Program-made: the position numbers and the translations under genes
In this document: one piece after another, positions 51,593 through 60,050 of the stretch
Layout: each line of letters starts with the position of its first letter
How positions within the stretch are numbered: the first letter of the stretch is position 1
Source: Gemmataceae bacterium
GTDB taxonomy: Bacteria; Planctomycetota; Planctomycetia; Gemmatales; Gemmataceae
Assembly (NCBI GenBank): GCA_028288765.1
Contig: JAQGHQ010000063.1
Location: 1 to 64,000 of the forward strand
Direction: 5' to 3'
Length of the DNA stretch: 64,000 nucleotides
The notes under the pieces: generated by a model
Told to the model about the DNA's origin: nothing
The model's database searches: none
Seen by the model: only the letters and a program-made list of their open reading frames with translations

Positions 51593-51916
51593 GGCCTGTC
51601 CTCCCGCTGAGGGGCGCGAGAGCTTCGCACAACGGACCCGGAGCGGGGTCGGACCCGTTTTAGTGGTAGAAGTTAGCTCTCAGCGGCGGAAAATAAAAGC
51701 CCGAAACCCTGTAGAACCTCAAATATCCTGTCGTCGTTTCCATCCCAGCTGAACTGTTGTCGCTTCTGTAAAGAGTCGGCAACATTTATCGGGGTTGGGG
51801 GTCCTGGAACTTACTCCTTCCGGCGTCCCCTCCTTGCACACGGCGGTCCGAGTCGGTCCGCTTTCCTGCTATAATGCCCAGGACTTGTGCGGACTACCAC
51901 CCGAGATCAACTCCGG
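51593..51916. other. Divergent gap with a TATAAT box before ygiQ
   Basis: A 324-base divergent control region. TATAAT at 51870-51875 (GCTATAATGCCC) is a perfect -10 box on the plus strand, 41 bases before the ygiQ start. No -35 at standard spacing; TTGCAC at 51834 is too far. Bases 51660-51800 are AT-richer than average and may hold the promoter of the minus-strand surface-protein gene. Confidence 0.45.
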
Positions 51917-54019
51917 ATGCCGTCGCCTTCATCGAACCAGCACCGCCCCCCTCAACCGGGTAGCCGTCTCTCCTTGCCGCTCTGGCACGAGCGGTTCGCG
52001 GCCCCGTTCGCGCCGACGACGGCCGCCGAGATGACCGAACGCGGCTGGGATGCGGTCGACGTCGTGTTCGTGACCGGGGACGCATACGTCGATCACCCCA
52101 GCTTCGCGATGGCGATCTTGCACCGGATCCTGGAGCAAGCCGGGTTCCGGGTTGCCATCCTGAGCCAGCCCGCCTGGCGGTCGTGTACCGCCTGGCGGCA
52201 GTTCGGTCGCCCCCGCCTGTTCTTCGCAATCAGTGCGGGGAACATGGACTCACTCATCAACCACTACACGGCGAACAAGAAGGTCCGCAACGACGACGCG
52301 TATTCGCCCGGGGGGCGGATCGGCCTGCGCCCGGACCGGGCCACGCTGGCCTATTGCCAGCGGGCGCGGGAGGCGTTCCCGGGCGTTCCCGTGATCGCCG
52401 GCGGGGTCGAGGCGTCACTCCGCCGGCTCGCCCACTACGACTACTGGAGCGATACCGTCCGCCGGTCGATCGTGCTCGACTCGAAGGCCGACGTCGTCGT
52501 GTACGGTATGGGGGAAAAGACGATTGTGGAAGTCGCCCGGCGTTTGGCGGCCGGGAAAACGGTGAAGGATTTGCGGGATTTGCGGGGTGTGACGTTTGCG
52601 CTGGGAGCTGCCGAATCCGACGAGTGGGCCGCAAGCGGCCGACCGTCCGCGTTCGAGAAGACCGAGATCATCCCGTCCTTCGAGGAGGTCAAGACGGACA
52701 AGATGGCGTTCGCGGAAGCGACCCGGCTCATCCATTCGCACACCAACCCCTTCAACGCGGCCGTCCTCGTCCAGTACCACGACCGGCAGGCGGTGGTCCA
52801 GAACCCGCCCCCGCTGCCGCTCACCGGGCCGGAGATGGATGAGGTGTACGACCTGCCCTTCACCCGCCGGCCGCATCCGTCCTACACGGAGCCGGTCCCC
52901 GCCCACGAAATGATCAAGGACTCCGTCACGATCATGCGCGGCTGCTTCGGCGGCTGTACGTTCTGCTCGATCACGGCGCACCAGGGGCGGATTATCCAGA
53001 GCCGGTCGGAGGAATCGGTGCTCAGCGAGGTCCGGAAACTGACCGCGGACCCGGAGTTCAAGGGGGTGATCAGCGACATCGGCGGGGCGACGGCGAACAT
53101 GTACCGGATGCGGTGTACGCGGCCGGAGGTGGAGGCGAAGTGCAAGCGGCTCTCGTGCGTCCACCCGGGCATTTGCAAGCTGCTCGGCACCGACCACGGC
53201 CCCCTGGTCGCGCTGATGAAAGAAGTCCGGGCACAGGACGGCGTGCGGAAGGTGGTGGTTTCGAGCGGCATCCGGATGGACCTGGCCCAGCTCTCCCCGG
53301 AGTACGTCCGCGACCTCGCCGAACACCACACCGGCGGGCGGCTGAAGGTCGCCCCGGAGCACACCAGCCCGCAAGTGTTGGAGCTGATGAAGAAGCCCCC
53401 GATCGACAACTTCGGTCGGTTCGCGACCCAGTTCCACCAGGCGTCGGCCGCCGCCGGGCGCCCGAAACAGCAGATCATCCCGTACTTCATCGCCAGCCAC
53501 CCGGGGTCCGACCTGGCCGAAATGATCGATCTCGCCCTTTACCTGAAGCGGAACGGCTACCGCCCGGACCAGGTCCAGGACTTCATCCCGGCCCCGTTCG
53601 ACATCGCGACGTGCATGTACTACACGGGGATCGACCCGTTCACGAAGAAGCCGGTCAAGGCTGCCAAGGGCATGCGGGACAGGAAGATGCAGCGCGCCTT
53701 GATGCAGTTTTTTAAGCCCGAGAACTGGTTCACCGTCCGCGAAGCACTGATCGAGGCTGGGCGGTCAGACCTGATCGGTGGGTGCGAGGGGCTCATCCCC
53801 GCTAACCCGCCGAAGGAAGCCCTGGAGGCCAAACGCAGGCAGGCGAATGAAGCCCTCAGGGGCGACCACTACCACACCGTCGCCAATCCGGCGAAGGGTG
53901 AGGAGCCCGGCGAACGGGGAGCGGAGCCACCGAAGAACAAGGGCTACCGCCCGGGGCGGAAGTCGGCGCGGCGGCAGCAGGGCAAGAAGAAAGGCGGCGG
54001 TTCAACACCGCGACCATAG
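51917..54019 (+). CDS. ygiQ: YgiQ-family (UPF0313) radical SAM protein
   Basis: 700 residues starting MPSPSSNQHRPPQP. The N-terminal domain (DVVFVTGDAYVDHPSFAMAI, AGNMDSLINHYTANKK, PVIAGGVEASLRRLAHYDYW) and the radical SAM motif RGCFGGCTFCSI (C-x3-C-x2-C) are typical of YgiQ. The C-terminal section (DIATCMYYTGIDPFTKKPVK ... GYRPGRKS) ends in a basic Lys/Arg tail. The reaction is unknown. The last 420 bases (53600-54019) exist in two further partial copies downstream, so the 3' end of this gene looks like an integration target. Confidence 0.93.
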   Translation: MPSPSSNQHRPPQPGSRLSLPLWHERFAAPFAPTTAAEMTERGWDAVDVVFVTGDAYVDHPSFAMAILHRILEQAGFRVAILSQPAWRSCTAWRQFGRPRLFFAISAGNMDSLINHYTANKKVRNDDAYSPGGRIGLRPDRATLAYCQRAREAFPGVPVIAGGVEASLRRLAHYDYWSDTVRRSIVLDSKADVVVYGMGEKTIVEVARRLAAGKTVKDLRDLRGVTFALGAAESDEWAASGRPSAFEKTEIIPSFEEVKTDKMAFAEATRLIHSHTNPFNAAVLVQYHDRQAVVQNPPPLPLTGPEMDEVYDLPFTRRPHPSYTEPVPAHEMIKDSVTIMRGCFGGCTFCSITAHQGRIIQSRSEESVLSEVRKLTADPEFKGVISDIGGATANMYRMRCTRPEVEAKCKRLSCVHPGICKLLGTDHGPLVALMKEVRAQDGVRKVVVSSGIRMDLAQLSPEYVRDLAEHHTGGRLKVAPEHTSPQVLELMKKPPIDNFGRFATQFHQASAAAGRPKQQIIPYFIASHPGSDLAEMIDLALYLKRNGYRPDQVQDFIPAPFDIATCMYYTGIDPFTKKPVKAAKGMRDRKMQRALMQFFKPENWFTVREALIEAGRSDLIGGCEGLIPANPPKEALEAKRRQANEALRGDHYHTVANPAKGEEPGERGAEPPKNKGYRPGRKSARRQQGKKKGGGSTPRP
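53600..53659 (+). repeat. Copy 1 of a 60-bp att-like block inside ygiQ
   Basis: The block starts GACATCGCGACGTGCATGTA and ends GCCGGTCAAG. It is identical over 60 bases to 58424-58483 and matches 59825-59884 with three differences. Beyond the block the copies diverge, and before it they share nothing. It contains CGGGGATCGACCCG, a short inverted repeat with a six-base spacer, as seen at some recombinase cores. Confidence 0.7.
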
Positions 54020-54422: not shown

Positions 54423-56678
54423 TTACGGCTTGTCGCGCGGCGTCGGCGGACCCGCGGGTGTCATGTCCCAAACGAGCGCCGTCCCGTCTTGGCTTCCGGA
54501 GATCAGTCGCCGGCCGTCGGTGGTGAACGCCAGCCCGCCGACGTACCCCCGGTGTCCGACCAGCGTGCGGGCCTGGCGGCCGGTCGCCACCTCGAACCCG
54601 ACGATCTCACCCGTGTTGTACGACACCCACAGCGTGCGGCCGTCCGGCGACACCGCCGACGCGCCGGTGTAGCGATAAGAAACGGCTCCCGGTTCTCGCG
54701 GCGTGTCGAAGCCGCGGACGACCTTGCCCGCCGCAGGGTCGAGCAGGTTCATCTGGCCCTCGAACGTCTCCCCCTCGTTCCCGTCCGGCTGGATGATCGT
54801 CCCACCCCCACCGATCAGTACGAAGCGCCCGTCCGCGGTGAACGTGCCGGAGCGGAACGTGCCCGAGGACTCGGCCAGCCGACGCACCCGCTTGCCGGTC
54901 GCGAACTCCCACACGTCCACGACGCCCTCCGCACGGTAGCCGTACCGCAGGCCGTCGCGTTCCTTGTACCAGGAGCGGTTGGCGACGGTCACCAGCCACT
55001 TGCCGTCGGGCGAGACCGCGGCGGCCTGGCAGTGGTTCTCGCCCTCCTCCGGGTTCGGTGCCGCTTTCGTGCCCGGCTTCGGCAGGTCGATGGTGCGGGC
55101 GACCTTCAGGGCGGGCCACTCCCAGATCGTCACCTTCGGCCCGGCCGCGGCGACGATGTGCTTCCCGTCCGGGGTGAAGGACAGGGTCTCGCACTTCGCG
55201 TCGGCCGGCAGGTTCGCGGGCGTCGTCTCGCGGCCGGTGGCGAAGTCCCACGTCCGCAACCCGCCGTCGTCGGTCGCCGCCAGCACGACCTTTCCGTCCG
55301 GGCTGAGCGCCATCCCGCGGACGCCGCCCGGCACCGCGACCGAGCGGCGCTCCTCGCCCGTCGCCACGTCCCACCAGCGGATGGTGTTGTCCCACCCCGA
55401 AGTGACGGCTTGCTTGCCGTCCGGGGTGAGGGCGACGTTCCCGACGATGTACTTGTGGCCGGGCAGCGGGCAGGCGTCGGCCCCGGTCGCCGCGTCCCAC
55501 AGCCGGATCTGCCCGTCCTGCCCCGCCGAGGCGACCAGCTTCCCGTCCGGCGACACGGCGAGCGCTTCCACCCAGTCGTGGGACGCGAACGTGTGGAGCA
55601 GCTTCCCGGTCGCCACGTCCCACAGCTTGGCGGTGTTGTCCCACCCGCCGGTCGCCAGCGTCTTGCCGCCGGGACCGAAGGCGACGGCGTACGTCCCGTG
55701 GCCCCCGTTCGGTTTCTTGCTGACGTGCCCGGTGGCGAGCTTCCGCTCCTTGCCGGTCGCCAGATCCCACAGGCTCGTGTCGCCGCCCTCCAGCCCGATC
55801 GCCAGGGTCGTGTCCGAGACGGCGACCGCCGGCCGCGCCCCGTTGGCCGCCGGCCGCGGGGTCTTGAACCGGACCCTCTCCCGGCTGGTCCGCACGTCCC
55901 ACACGGTCACGAGTTGCTCGCCCTCCCACTTGTCGTCGCCCAGGTACTTCGCCGGGGTGATGACGACGAGGGTCTTCGCGTCCGGGGTGAAGCGGACCTC
56001 CCCGCAGTTGCCGGGGTGGATGACGCCGCCCTTGAGCGGCTTGAGCGTGTCCGACCGGACGCCGGTCTTGAACTCCCAGAACTGCACCGGACGGTCCCCG
56101 TCCAACTGCCCCGCCCTGCCGACGGCCAGGATCTTTCCGTCCGGGCTGACGGCGAAGCACGCGTCGTACTCGTTGTCCTGTACCGGCGGGTCGGCGGGAA
56201 CGGAACCCACCTTGATGCCTTTCTGGGGTTGCGGCCGCGGCCCTTGCGGTTTCTCGGCCTTCTCGTCGGTGAACTCCCAGACGAGTGGGGCGCGGCCTTC
56301 GCCCGAACTCGTCAGCGCGATACCCCGGCCGTCGGGCAGCCACGCGAGCGGCCTGACCACCCCCGGCCGCTCGACGCGGCGCAGCGCGCGGCCGGTCTTG
56401 GTGTCCCAGACGGTGAGTTCGTCGTCGTAAGAGTCCCCGCTGTACGACGCGAGCCTCGTCCCGTCCGGCGAGAACGCCAGGCGCATCACGGACCCGGCGG
56501 TTCGCAGGCGGACGCTGCCGAGCCGGGCGACCGCGGACGGCGGCAGCGCCTCGCTCGGAGCGCCGGCGTCGGCCTTCGCGTCCGCGTCCTTCGGCTTCGG
56601 TTCGGTCTTCACCGGCGGCTCCTGTGGTTTCGCTGACGCCGCGGCGCTGGCCTGCGGGTCGTCTCCGATCCCGCCCAT
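54423..56678 (-). CDS. WD40-repeat protein, the C-terminal half of a split ECF sigma/WD40 gene
   Basis: About 751 residues if started at MGGIGDDPQ; the open frame continues upstream. A charged linker (PPVKTEPKPKDADAKADAG) precedes WD40 blades, recognisable as repeated SPDGK...LWD units (MRLAFSPDGTRLASYSGD, LATGGWDNTAKLWDVATGK, LVASAGQDGQIRLWDAATG, RRLISGSQDGTALVWD). This makes one or two beta-propellers. The upstream sigma gene ends in the same membrane segment that this frame continues (GVGAVTYRTAMGG), so the two were probably one gene, as in other Gemmata ECF-WD40 fusions. Whether it is still translated by restart or frameshift is unknown. Confidence 0.8.
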   Translation of the reverse strand: MGGIGDDPQASAAASAKPQEPPVKTEPKPKDADAKADAGAPSEALPPSAVARLGSVRLRTAGSVMRLAFSPDGTRLASYSGDSYDDELTVWDTKTGRALRRVERPGVVRPLAWLPDGRGIALTSSGEGRAPLVWEFTDEKAEKPQGPRPQPQKGIKVGSVPADPPVQDNEYDACFAVSPDGKILAVGRAGQLDGDRPVQFWEFKTGVRSDTLKPLKGGVIHPGNCGEVRFTPDAKTLVVITPAKYLGDDKWEGEQLVTVWDVRTSRERVRFKTPRPAANGARPAVAVSDTTLAIGLEGGDTSLWDLATGKERKLATGHVSKKPNGGHGTYAVAFGPGGKTLATGGWDNTAKLWDVATGKLLHTFASHDWVEALAVSPDGKLVASAGQDGQIRLWDAATGADACPLPGHKYIVGNVALTPDGKQAVTSGWDNTIRWWDVATGEERRSVAVPGGVRGMALSPDGKVVLAATDDGGLRTWDFATGRETTPANLPADAKCETLSFTPDGKHIVAAAGPKVTIWEWPALKVARTIDLPKPGTKAAPNPEEGENHCQAAAVSPDGKWLVTVANRSWYKERDGLRYGYRAEGVVDVWEFATGKRVRRLAESSGTFRSGTFTADGRFVLIGGGGTIIQPDGNEGETFEGQMNLLDPAAGKVVRGFDTPREPGAVSYRYTGASAVSPDGRTLWVSYNTGEIVGFEVATGRQARTLVGHRGYVGGLAFTTDGRRLISGSQDGTALVWDMTPAGPPTPRDKP

Positions 56679-56692
56679 CGCGGTGCGGTAAG

Positions 56693-57442
56693 TCACCGCG
56701 CCGACACCGCCGACGCCAACAGTAGAACGGCGGCGACCACCTTGAACTTCTGAATCGTCATGGCGTGGACCACTCCGTTGGAAAGGGAGAGGGCGGCCGG
56801 GGTGGCGGCCCTCCCCGCGGCAAGCAGGGCTGCCGGGGTTTGGTTCGCGACGGTGGCCGCGAGCAGAACCCCGCCGAGTTCGATCCCCCTGCGGCCCAGC
56901 CGCGATCGCAGCGTCTCGCGGGCACGCTCCAGGCACCCCTTCACCTGCCCCTCCGACCACCCCAGTTGTGCGGCGGCCTCGTCCCGCGACCGTCCTTCGA
57001 GGCAGCACACGATCAGCACCGCCCGGTATCGCTCCGGCAACCGGGCCAGTTCCTCGTCGAGCGTCGCCAGCCCCTCGCGGAGCGTCACGTCGTCCGCCGG
57101 GGTTTCGGCGGGGCGGGCGGACGATGCCTCGACCGCGGCCCGGCGACGCCCGCCGCGGCGGGCGTTGGCCGCGACACGCCGCGCGACCTCGTGCAGCCAC
57201 GCCGGGAGGGAAGCCCGAACCGACCCGGCCTTGCGGGCGAGGGTGAGGAACACGGCCTGGAACACGTCCTCGGCGTCTCGACCCGCGAGCCGCCGGCAGG
57301 CAGCCATTACCCCGCCGCCGTACCTCCGGACGATGGCCGCGAACGCCTCCTCGTCCCGGTCGCTGGCGTAGCGGTCCAGCAACTCACGATCCGGCGCTGC
57401 CTCGGAAGCAGTCGCGCGGATGTATCGCAGCAACTGGCTCAT
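56693..57442 (-). CDS. ECF sigma factor, N-terminal part of a split sigma/WD40 gene
   Basis: 249 residues from MSQLLRYIRATASEAAP. Sigma region 2 (EEAFAAIVRRYGGGVMAACRR, EDVFQAVFLTLARKAGSV) and region 4 (LPERYRAVLIVCCLEGRS, DEAAAQLGWSEGQVKGCLER) are intact. A short linker leads into a membrane segment (KFKVVAAVLLLASAV) where the frame stops at 56693-56695. Slipping back one base near 56705 would continue SAGVGAVTYRTAMGG into the WD40 frame. The sigma part is complete and could act alone. No slippery heptamer is seen, so a base loss or gain is the simplest cause. Confidence 0.85.
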   Translation of the reverse strand: MSQLLRYIRATASEAAPDRELLDRYASDRDEEAFAAIVRRYGGGVMAACRRLAGRDAEDVFQAVFLTLARKAGSVRASLPAWLHEVARRVAANARRGGRRRAAVEASSARPAETPADDVTLREGLATLDEELARLPERYRAVLIVCCLEGRSRDEAAAQLGWSEGQVKGCLERARETLRSRLGRRGIELGGVLLAATVANQTPAALLAAGRAATPAALSLSNGVVHAMTIQKFKVVAAVLLLASAVSAR

Positions 57443-57790
57443 CGGCCCTCCCCTGTGACCTCTATATGTCCGCGGCCAGCGGTTCGGCACGGCCGGATAG
57501 AAATAGAAAGGAAAAGGGTCGGGAAGACCCCGGCCCGGGCACCGCGGTTTCACCCGACGCCACTTCGGCCACTTCTCGATCCCCGCGGTGAACGCCTTGA
57601 CCATCTTCCGGTGGCCCCGGAGCTTAGGGAGGCAGTGCGGTATAATCTACCAACCGACCCCGTCCAATTTCTTGGAATTACCCGGGTGGCGACCTTTCTG
57701 CCTGGTAGTTCATCTCCCGCTGTCTGCCTTACGTCTTGAATATCGCTCGACGACATCCCGTTCGGGTAGCCATATCTACAGCGCGCGGGG
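57443..57790. other. Gap between sigma gene and Argonaute remnant
   Basis: About 350 bases, less GC-rich than the surroundings. TATAAT at 57641-57646 is on the plus strand but has no -35 box. A frame ending near 57810 reads IYSARGEGLRYARTG, which could be the part of the Argonaute just before the remnant in another frame. No intact gene. Confidence 0.4.
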
Positions 57791-57793
57791 TGA

Positions 57794-58150
57794 GGGGCTC
57801 CGGTACGCCAGGACGGGTTCCCTGTCCGCCGCGGCACCGTCGTGCAACTCGCCGGGCACTCGGCGCTCTTGTGGTCCCACGGCTCTACGCCGGCCCTGGA
57901 CGGACGGAAGACGTACTATCAGGGCAAGCGGCGGATACCGGCACCGCTCGTCGTCAGTCGGCACCTGGGCGAGACGCCGCTCGCCACTGTCGCCGACGAG
58001 ATTCTGGGGCTCACGAAGATGAACTGGAACACGTTCGACATGTACACGAAACTCCCCGCTACCGTTGCCACATCGAACGAGATCGCCCGGATCGGCTCGC
58101 TCCTCGACCGATTCACCGAGGCGTCCTACGACTACCGGCTGTTCATGTAG
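57794..58150 (+). pseudogene. C-terminal remnant of a prokaryotic Argonaute (PIWI domain end)
   Basis: About 118 codons are open after a TGA at 57791. The translation matches the end of long prokaryotic Argonautes: GFPVRRGTVVQLAGHSALLW, SHGSTPALDGRKTYYQGKRR and EILGLTKMNWNTFD. The family hallmark LTKMNWN is intact, and the protein ends in YDYRLFM. Full pAgos have 650-800 residues; the N, PAZ, MID and most of PIWI are missing, and no start with a ribosome site is present. The family call rests on recognised motifs, not a search. Argonautes use guide nucleic acids to target invading DNA; this fragment cannot do so. It lies between two copies of the ygiQ 3' end. Confidence 0.75.
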
Positions 58151-58423: not shown

Positions 58424-58483
58424 GACATCGCGACGTGCATGTACTACACGGGGATCGACCCGTTCACGAAGAAGCCGGTCAAG
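58424..58483 (+). repeat. Copy 2 of the 60-bp att-like block
   Basis: Identical over 60 bases to ygiQ 53600-53659. Upstream bases have no similarity to ygiQ; downstream bases continue as a diverged ygiQ 3' end. Confidence 0.75.
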
Positions 58484-58830
58484 ACCGCGAGGAGCTTGCG
58501 CGACCGGAAACTGCAGCGGGCGCTGATGCAGTTCTTCAAGCCGGAGAACTACTTCGAGGTGCGGGAGGCCCTGGTCCGGGCCGGCCGGGCGGACCTGATC
58601 GGGGGCTGCGACGGGCTCATCCCCGCGAACCCGCCGCGGGAGGCGATCGAGGCCCGGCGGCGGCAGGCCAACCAGACGGTCCAGGAGGACCACTACCACA
58701 CGGTGGTGAATCCGGCGAAGGGGGAGAAACCCGGTGTGCGCCGGGTCGAGCCGGCAAAGGGTTATCGTTCCGGGCGGAAGTCGGTGGGGAGGCGGCAGGG
58801 AAAAAGAAGGACGGCGGATCAGTGGCGTGA
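58424..58830 (+). pseudogene. Second partial copy of the ygiQ 3' end
   Basis: It encodes DIATCMYYTGIDPFTKKPVK followed by a diverged version of the YgiQ C-terminus (LQRALMQFFKPENYFEVREA, LIGGCDGLIPANPPREAIEA, EDHYHTVVNPAKGE). Beyond the first 60 bases it differs from the intact gene at many positions, so it comes from another lineage and is not a recent duplicate. One A is missing in GGGAAAAAGAAGG; restoring it gives KKKDGGSVA and a stop at 58828-58830, aligned with the intact gene's end. There is no N-terminal part or radical SAM motif. An ATG at 58409 could express a short fragment, but that looks accidental. Confidence 0.85.
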
Positions 58831-58875
58831 TCATGGGCGGGCCGCACCTGCCCCAGGGTGAGGAGAGCCAGTGTG

Positions 58876-59631
58876 ATGGCAGACTTCACTCCGACCCAAG
58901 GCCGATATCTGGCGTTTATCCACGCCTACATCGATCGGCATGGCTACCCACCCGCCGAATCCGAAATCGCTACGGCCATGTGCGTTTCGCCGCCGTCGGT
59001 GAATCAGATAGTGAAGATGTTGGAAAAGAAAGGACTGATTCTCCGCCATCCGGGACAGCCCCGCTCGCTCCAAATCCTGGTCCCGGAAGACGAGATTCCG
59101 GCGTGGAATCAGCGCAGGTCGGCGAAGAGTCCCGTGCGTCCCGGTAACCAACCGAGGCGCGTTGCCGCGACTCCGGCGGCACCTCCGGCGAACCTGTACG
59201 TCTTATCGGTCTTCCTGACGGCCGGGCCTGTCAGTGAGAAGTTCGCCAACAAGGAGATTCGCCGCGACATTGAAATCCGTGGCGACCAGACGCTCGAACA
59301 ACTGCACCAGGCCATCTTCGAGGCGTTCGACCGGTCTGATGAGCACCTTTATGAATTCCAGTTCGGCAAGCGTCCGTTCGATCCCGACGGACCCAACTAC
59401 GGCGTTCCCGATCTGCAGAAAAGCAAGAAGGGGCACGGAGACGCGCGCGAGACGACACTGGACGCCCTCGATCTTAAGCCGAATCGCGTCTTCGGTTACC
59501 TGTTCGACTTCGGCGACGAATGGTTTCATCAGGTCCAGGTGGAGCGGATCGGGCAAGCCATTCCGACCGTGACCTACCCGCGAGTCATCAAGCGGGTGGG
59601 CAAGTCTCCGCCGCAGTATGCCGAAGAATAG
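58876..59631 (+). CDS. LexA-type winged-helix domain fused to a pRiA4b ORF-3-like domain
   Basis: 251 residues from MADFTPTQGRYLAFIH, with AGGAGAG upstream. Residues 1-65 match the LexA DNA-binding domain (YIDRHGYPPAESEIATAMCV, PPSVNQIVKMLEKKGLI) without the LexA protease domain. From about 105 the sequence is of the plasmid pRiA4b ORF-3 family (TLEQLHQAIFEAFDRSDEHL, YEFQFGKRP, FGYLFDFGDEWFHQVQVE), whose role is unknown and which is often on mobile elements. The gene is intact and lies between ygiQ 3' copies 2 and 3. Confidence 0.85.
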   Translation: MADFTPTQGRYLAFIHAYIDRHGYPPAESEIATAMCVSPPSVNQIVKMLEKKGLILRHPGQPRSLQILVPEDEIPAWNQRRSAKSPVRPGNQPRRVAATPAAPPANLYVLSVFLTAGPVSEKFANKEIRRDIEIRGDQTLEQLHQAIFEAFDRSDEHLYEFQFGKRPFDPDGPNYGVPDLQKSKKGHGDARETTLDALDLKPNRVFGYLFDFGDEWFHQVQVERIGQAIPTVTYPRVIKRVGKSPPQYAEE

Positions 59632-59826
59632 GTGCGAACGACGTCGAACTCCCTGACGAAACGCGACCCAGACCCCTCCGTCGAGCGGCGCGACCGCGAT
59701 CGGACAAGCAACATTGCCGGCGCGACGCGTACGATCGCGGACTCGCTGGGATTGCCCGCGGACCGATTGGTAACGGCCGATGGGGATCTCGAAACGATAG
59801 AATTGCTTCATGCGGAGGGCCCGTGA
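59632..59826 (+). CDS. Possible small protein after the LexA fusion, 64 aa
   Basis: The GTG follows the previous stop directly. The translation (e.g. NIAGATRTIADSLGLPAD) looks moderately protein-like and ends in the first bases of ygiQ copy 3. No ribosome site or family is seen. It could be a remnant or a chance frame. Confidence 0.25.
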   Translation: MRTTSNSLTKRDPDPSVERRDRDRTSNIAGATRTIADSLGLPADRLVTADGDLETIELLHAEGP

Positions 59827-59884
59827 CACCGCGACGTGCGCGTACTACACGGGGATCGACCCGTTCACGAAGAAGCCGGTCAAG
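59825..59884 (+). repeat. Copy 3 of the 60-bp att-like block
   Basis: Matches copies 1 and 2 with three substitutions (GACACCGCG for GACATCGCG, and GTGCGCGTAC for GTGCATGTAC). It marks the right end of the accessory region. Confidence 0.7.
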
Positions 59885-60050
59885 ACCGCGGGCCGACCAC
59901 TACCACGCGGTCGCGAACCCGGCGGAAGGCGAATCGGCAGGTAAGCGGACGACCCCGGCGCTGACGAAGAACACGGAATACCGCCCCGGCCGAAAAACCA
60001 AGGTCCGCCGCCAGAAACCCGGCCGCGGGCCGAAGGGGCCAGTCCAGTAG
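59825..60050 (+). pseudogene. Third, internally deleted copy of the ygiQ 3' end
   Basis: The first 60 bases (59825-59884) match the att-like block with three changes. About 200 bases of the ygiQ 3' end are then missing and the copy resumes in another frame with DHYHAVANPAEGE, EYRPGRKTKVRRQ and a stop at 60048-60050. The bases just after the block (ACCGCG) are shared with copy 2, not with the intact gene. This is the most decayed copy and would be the displaced original gene end under an integration model. Confidence 0.8.

What the first reader, a model, noticed from the sequence alone, without database searches (positions are those of the whole stretch)
57770..58150. Argonaute (PIWI) C-terminal remnant in the ygiQ island
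An open stretch of about 118 codons ends with motifs characteristic of long prokaryotic Argonautes (YYQGKRRIP, EILGLTKMNWNTFD, terminal RLFM). Everything upstream of the last part of PIWI is missing, though another frame just upstream (RGEGLRYARTG) may be a further piece. This suggests that a defence island with an Argonaute once occupied this spot and has decayed.
Basis: partly seen in the sequence, partly recalled or inferred. Interest (0 to 1): 0.7.

Follow-up and report, generated by a model that had tools for sequence, protein, structure and literature searches.

The report
Broken Argonaute defence gene in ygiQ island
A planctomycete chromosome keeps only the tail end of a dead antiviral Argonaute gene (of the kind fused to an NAD-destroying enzyme), stranded where mobile elements repeatedly insert into the gene ygiQ; the dead gene is ordinary, but the insertion hotspot around it appears not to have been described.

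Summary
Window 57803-58150 (+) encodes the last ~115 residues of a prokaryotic Argonaute (PADLOC pAgo E=2e-48). The out-of-frame piece just upstream (SHIYSARGEGLRY, 57768-57806) is also Argonaute: it matches residues 833-845 of a relative, so about 95 codons were deleted between the pieces (0 of 2000 shuffles score as high). The rest of the gene is missing from the assembly.

The parent was not a long pAgo but a single-chain SPARSA (SIR2-APAZ-short pAgo, ~1050 aa): the fragment groups with five fused homologues at 100/100 support, apart from two-gene SPARSA. The locus is a dead gene.

The context is more interesting. The remnant lies between ygiQ and a displaced ygiQ 3' end. Twenty-six such tails in 15 Gemmataceae genomes begin at the same position (ygiQ codon 572): 84% identity just downstream, 29% (chance) upstream. 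A large serine recombinase abuts the boundary in five of these genomes. So ygiQ is a site-specific integration hotspot with tandem accretion; that the Argonaute arrived with such an element is inferred. No relative examined has an Argonaute at ygiQ, and one large element there (88 kb) is a conjugation/metal-efflux element, not a defence island.

The parts
57768..57806 (+). Argonaute piece 1: SHIYSARGEGLRY, PIWI residues ~833-845 (G095 numbering), out of frame with piece 2
   Evidence: tblastn of full-length relatives; 0 of 2000 shuffles score as high
57803..58150 (+). Argonaute piece 2: C-terminal ~115 residues (to the stop) of a single-chain SPARSA Argonaute
   Evidence: PADLOC E=2e-48; 60-63% identity to fused Agos
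57664..57733 (.). ~70-nt repeat just upstream of the remnant, 94-96% identical copies on contigs C246 and C253 of the same genome
51887..54019 (+). intact ygiQ (radical SAM + DUF3362); recombination boundary at 53600 (codon 572)
   Evidence: Pfam PF08497, PF04055, PF11842; boundary
54423..57442 (-). ECF sigma factor plus WD40 protein, cargo between ygiQ and tail 1
   Evidence: Pfam Sigma70_r2/r4 and WD40
58424..58861 (+). displaced ygiQ 3' end (tail 1); starts exactly at codon 572
   Evidence: first 45 nt 100% identical to ygiQ, upstream 60 nt 33%
58858..59631 (+). LexA-type HTH + PRiA4_ORF3 gene, recurrent cargo next to ygiQ in other species
   Evidence: Pfam; G088 and G019 loci
59599..59769 (+). 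remnant of the 2OG-Fe(II) oxygenase gene that follows the PRiA4_ORF3 gene in relatives
   Evidence: tblastn E=1.5e-7; Pfam of the relative
59825..60029 (+). decayed ygiQ 3' end (tail 2), same boundary, internally deleted

Best explanation
A single-chain SPARSA gene (SIR2-APAZ-short pAgo) was carried into the ygiQ 3' region, probably as cargo of an element that inserts at ygiQ codon 572 with a large serine recombinase and replaces the gene's 3' end. It then decayed: everything upstream of PIWI residue ~833 was lost, ~95 codons between the two surviving pieces were deleted out of frame, and only the C-terminal ~115 codons stay open. Shown: the identity, the two pieces, the type of parent, the absence of the rest from the assembly, and the common boundary of the ygiQ tails. 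Inferred: that the gene arrived with a ygiQ-inserting element, and that the intact ancestor worked like GsSPARSA (guide-directed recognition of invader DNA, SIR2 depletes NAD+, the cell aborts infection). The remnant itself most likely makes no working protein.
For: Fragment to PADLOC pAgo E=2.1e-48. Full-length homologue L009 matches both GsSPARSA subunits (8in8_C E=1.5e-53, 8in8_B E=1.1e-30) and PADLOC Aga_SIR2 models. The tree puts the fragment among fused Agos (100/100), away from two-gene SPARSA. Upstream piece significant. A full-length query finds only the C-terminal piece in the own genome. 26 ygiQ tails in 15 genomes share one boundary, and all five copies of one serine recombinase subfamily abut it. 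Relatives of the gene lie in mobile contexts: TrwC relaxase and ParA beside the G137 gene, tyrosine integrase beside the G280 gene.
Against: No recombinase of this subfamily is left in the own genome and no relative carries an Argonaute at ygiQ, so the way of arrival is not shown; the gene could have come by other recombination inside the island. The genome is a draft in 615 contigs, so an assembly error at the 5' break cannot be excluded entirely.
Confidence: 0.85

Rival explanations
1. The fragment is a remnant of a free-standing long or two-gene short pAgo rather than of a fused SIR2-APAZ-Ago.
For: Short pAgos of two-gene systems also match.
Against: 60-63% identity to fused Agos against 37% to the best same-family two-gene Ago; 100/100 grouping with fused ones.
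Confidence: 0.07
2. The C-terminal stretch is kept and expressed as a small protein, for example as an inhibitor or regulator.
For: 118 codons stay open, with coding-like third-position G+C.
Against: No start codon before 57842, so the open start lies inside the PIWI fold; out-of-frame deletion directly upstream; other C-terminal remnants (L010, G072) differ in length and start.
Confidence: 0.04
3. The ygiQ tails arise from ordinary homologous recombination or duplication, not site-specific integration.
For: No recombinase of the subfamily in the own genome or G088, nor on the G089 contig with the ygiQ tails; several units are 0.8-4 kb with no recombinase.
Against: 26 tails in 15 genomes start at one position, 84% identity below and 29% above it; serine recombinase next to the boundary in five genomes.
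Confidence: 0.08

Closest known systems
Single-chain SPARSA (SIR2-APAZ fused to short pAgo; PADLOC PDLC02384 and Aga_SIR2-PNTD1-PNTD2)
   Same: C-terminal PIWI end aligns to the last residue at 60-63% identity; groups with fused members at 100/100. PMC10810196 notes that such NADase effectors are sometimes fused to the pAgo in one protein.
   Different: Only ~130 of ~1050 residues survive, in two pieces out of frame; SIR2, APAZ, MID and most of PIWI are gone.
GsSPARSA two-gene system (8in8, 8jkz; PMC10781750, PMC10474274)
   Same: Both subunits are homologous to the fused relative L009.
   Different: Encoded as two genes; the fragment is not closest to this branch.
Serine-recombinase islands in a gene's 3' end with tandem accretion, such as SCCmec at rlmH (own knowledge, not tested)
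   Same: Large serine recombinase, insertion in a conserved gene whose end is replaced, several copies in tandem.
   Different: Target is ygiQ codon 572, well inside the gene (~139 codons replaced); a recombinase subfamily known to me only from the Gemmataceae genomes searched here.

Membership tests
Prokaryotic Argonaute (PIWI C-terminus) | Sequence match to pAgo profiles up to the C-terminal end | tested here: met
   PDLC02384 E=2.1e-48, positions 930-1030/1030
Single-chain SPARSA | Closest relatives carry SIR2, APAZ-like region and short pAgo in one chain | tested here: met
   L009 matches SIR2_2 in Pfam and both GsSPARSA chains; tree 100/100
Single-chain SPARSA | SIR2, APAZ and MID present at this locus | tested here: not met
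   Only the C-terminal part is found with the full-length query; the locus is a remnant, not a working member
   Nearest relatives are fused short pAgos; long Agos match weakly (1yvu E=5.6e-4)
Site-specific integration hotspot at ygiQ | Displaced gene ends begin at one fixed position | tested here: met
   26 tails with preserved starts, 15 genomes
Site-specific integration hotspot at ygiQ | Recombinase gene adjacent to the boundary | tested here: met
   G014, G015, G023, G091, partial in G043; 85-87% identical to the G014 copy; no other match above 40% in 95 genomes. Not met in the window's own genome
Site-specific integration hotspot at ygiQ | Recombinase catalyses attP x attB joining | not testable with these tools
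   needs a bench assay

The most novel reading that the evidence does not exclude
The ygiQ tails mark a cassette system: one- or two-gene units without their own recombinase (0.8-4 kb, for example PRiA4_ORF3 plus 2OG-oxygenase) are captured in tandem at ygiQ codon 572 by a serine recombinase supplied in trans, a serine-recombinase counterpart of an integron, and the Argonaute was one captured cargo.
Probability: 0.15. Interest if true: 0.7.

Novelty: new member of a known kind. Interest (0 to 1): 0.35.

Why it matters
The Argonaute remnant shows only that a SPARSA-type defence gene was gained and lost here, which is common. The surroundings point to a family-wide insertion site in Gemmataceae with its own large serine recombinase, useful for tracing gene gain in large planctomycete genomes and possibly as a tool for genetic work in these bacteria. 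No paper holding both 'ygiQ' and 'attB' was found in the library searched.

Tried and rejected
Pfam-A on the fragment: no hit. IMG/VR scan with the fragment: no relative. Idea that the ago 3' end is itself an attachment site, because C-terminal remnants recur (L010 near a tyrosine-integrase-like gene, G072): rejected, because those finds came from a C-terminal query; the full-length search also found an N-terminal remnant (G097) and a gene split by a DDE-transposase insertion sequence (G137). Idea of a tyrosine integrase driving the ygiQ tails: no PF00589 match within G088 7.575-7.695 Mb. Structure prediction was not used: sequence evidence was already decisive.

Full report
WHAT IS THERE. The window is G000:C277:1-64000 of a 10.06-Mb, 615-contig draft genome. 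Frame 1 from 57770 has a TGA at 57791-57793 and then 118 open codons to the TAG at 58148-58150. The encoded stretch matches PADLOC pAgo PDLC02384 at E=2.1e-48, ending at its last position, and short pAgos of known structure.

THE SECOND PIECE. tblastn with full-length relatives shows SHIYSARGEGLRY at 57768-57806 in another frame, equal to residues 833-845 of the G095 Argonaute (SHIYSSRGEGLQY). The score, 62, was not reached in 2000 shuffles (maximum 52). The main piece begins at about residue 940, so ~95 codons are missing between them. About 35 nt further upstream ends a ~70-nt repeat with two other copies in the genome. A full-length query finds nothing else of the gene in the assembly.

WHICH ARGONAUTE. 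The closest full-length homologue, L009 (a Gemmatimonadetes MAG, 1075 aa), carries SIR2_2 and matches both chains of GsSPARSA: pAgo 8in8_C at E=1.5e-53 and Sir2-APAZ 8in8_B at E=1.1e-30. Fused genes of ~1045-1058 aa also occur in G095, G280 and G306, with a shorter 878-aa frame in G133. A maximum-likelihood tree of the C-terminal region groups the window fragment with five fused Agos at 100/100, apart from Agos of two-gene systems. PMC10810196 reports that NADase-APAZ effectors are sometimes fused to the pAgo. So the parent was a single-chain SPARSA, not a long pAgo. By homology its intact form would sense invader DNA with a guide and deplete NAD+ (PMC10781750, PMC10474274); this is inference for the ancestor. 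The remnant is most likely dead.

DECAY IS ORDINARY. In the class-level search with the full-length query other members are broken too: G137 is split by a DDE-transposase insertion sequence at residue ~1009, next to Hachiman HamA and HamB genes, and G097 keeps only residues 28-118. Relatives sit in mobile or defence settings: a tyrosine integrase and a type I methylase/specificity gene beside the G280 gene, a TrwC relaxase and ParA beside the G137 gene.

THE ygiQ ISLAND. ygiQ (51887-54019) is followed by cargo and two partial ygiQ 3' ends, at 58424 and 59825. I compared 26 tails with a preserved start from 15 Gemmataceae genomes with ygiQ (of the same genome where held, otherwise of a relative). 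All begin at ygiQ codon 572 (GACATCGC...): mean identity to ygiQ is 84% in the first 45 nt and 29% in the 60 nt before. More decayed or truncated tails were left out of this count. In several, the element end carries a motif like TTTATGCAAAGT...CCGTTC. In G014, G015, G023 and G091 a 548-628 aa serine recombinase (Resolvase and Recombinase domains in the two tested), 85-86% identical to the G014 copy, starts next to the boundary; G043 has a partial copy cut by a contig end. The next best matches in the 95 family genomes are at 40% identity or less. This is best explained by site-specific integration with replacement of the gene's end and tandem accretion; catalysis is inferred. The window's own genome and G088 lack this recombinase, so their islands look old or fixed.

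CARGO. The large G023 element (~88 kb between ygiQ and its tail) carries a TrwC relaxase, a replication initiator and AcrB/HlyD-type efflux genes; PADLOC hits there are scattered single proteins. A type IV coupling protein lies in the G015 element. Small units recur: a LexA-HTH/PRiA4_ORF3 gene with a 2OG-Fe(II) oxygenase, present in G088 and G019, decayed in the window. The hotspot is thus not a defence island as such. None of the other Argonaute loci of the family lies at ygiQ.

VERDICT. The Argonaute remnant is ordinary in kind; the ygiQ hotspot is the more interesting part and may be undescribed (the literature search was limited to the held library).

Noticed in passing
window 53600, 58424, 59825; L080, L081, L085, L091-L102: ygiQ codon 572 is a family-wide site-specific integration boundary in Gemmataceae with tandem ygiQ tails.
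   Followed up: yes
L100 1655-3340 (-), L101 3203-4849 (-), L099 and L085 (reversed orientation): Large serine recombinase subfamily (85-87% identical to the G014 copy) next to the ygiQ boundary in five genomes.
   Followed up: partly
window 57664-57733; G000 C246:548-616, C253:109-179: A ~70-nt repeat of unknown nature, three copies found in the own genome.
   Followed up: partly
L041 7360-16225: Single-chain SPARSA gene split by a DDE-transposase insertion sequence, next to Hachiman HamA and HamB genes, with TrwC relaxase and ParA upstream.
   Followed up: partly
L010 9261-9413: Argonaute C-terminal remnant of ~50 codons in a Phycisphaeraceae MAG, 0.8 kb from a tyrosine-integrase-like gene.
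   Followed up: partly
L081 5763-7748: Two similar small genes (MGLLTSAAQ...), each followed by a ygiQ tail in G089, units of about 0.8 kb.
   Followed up: no
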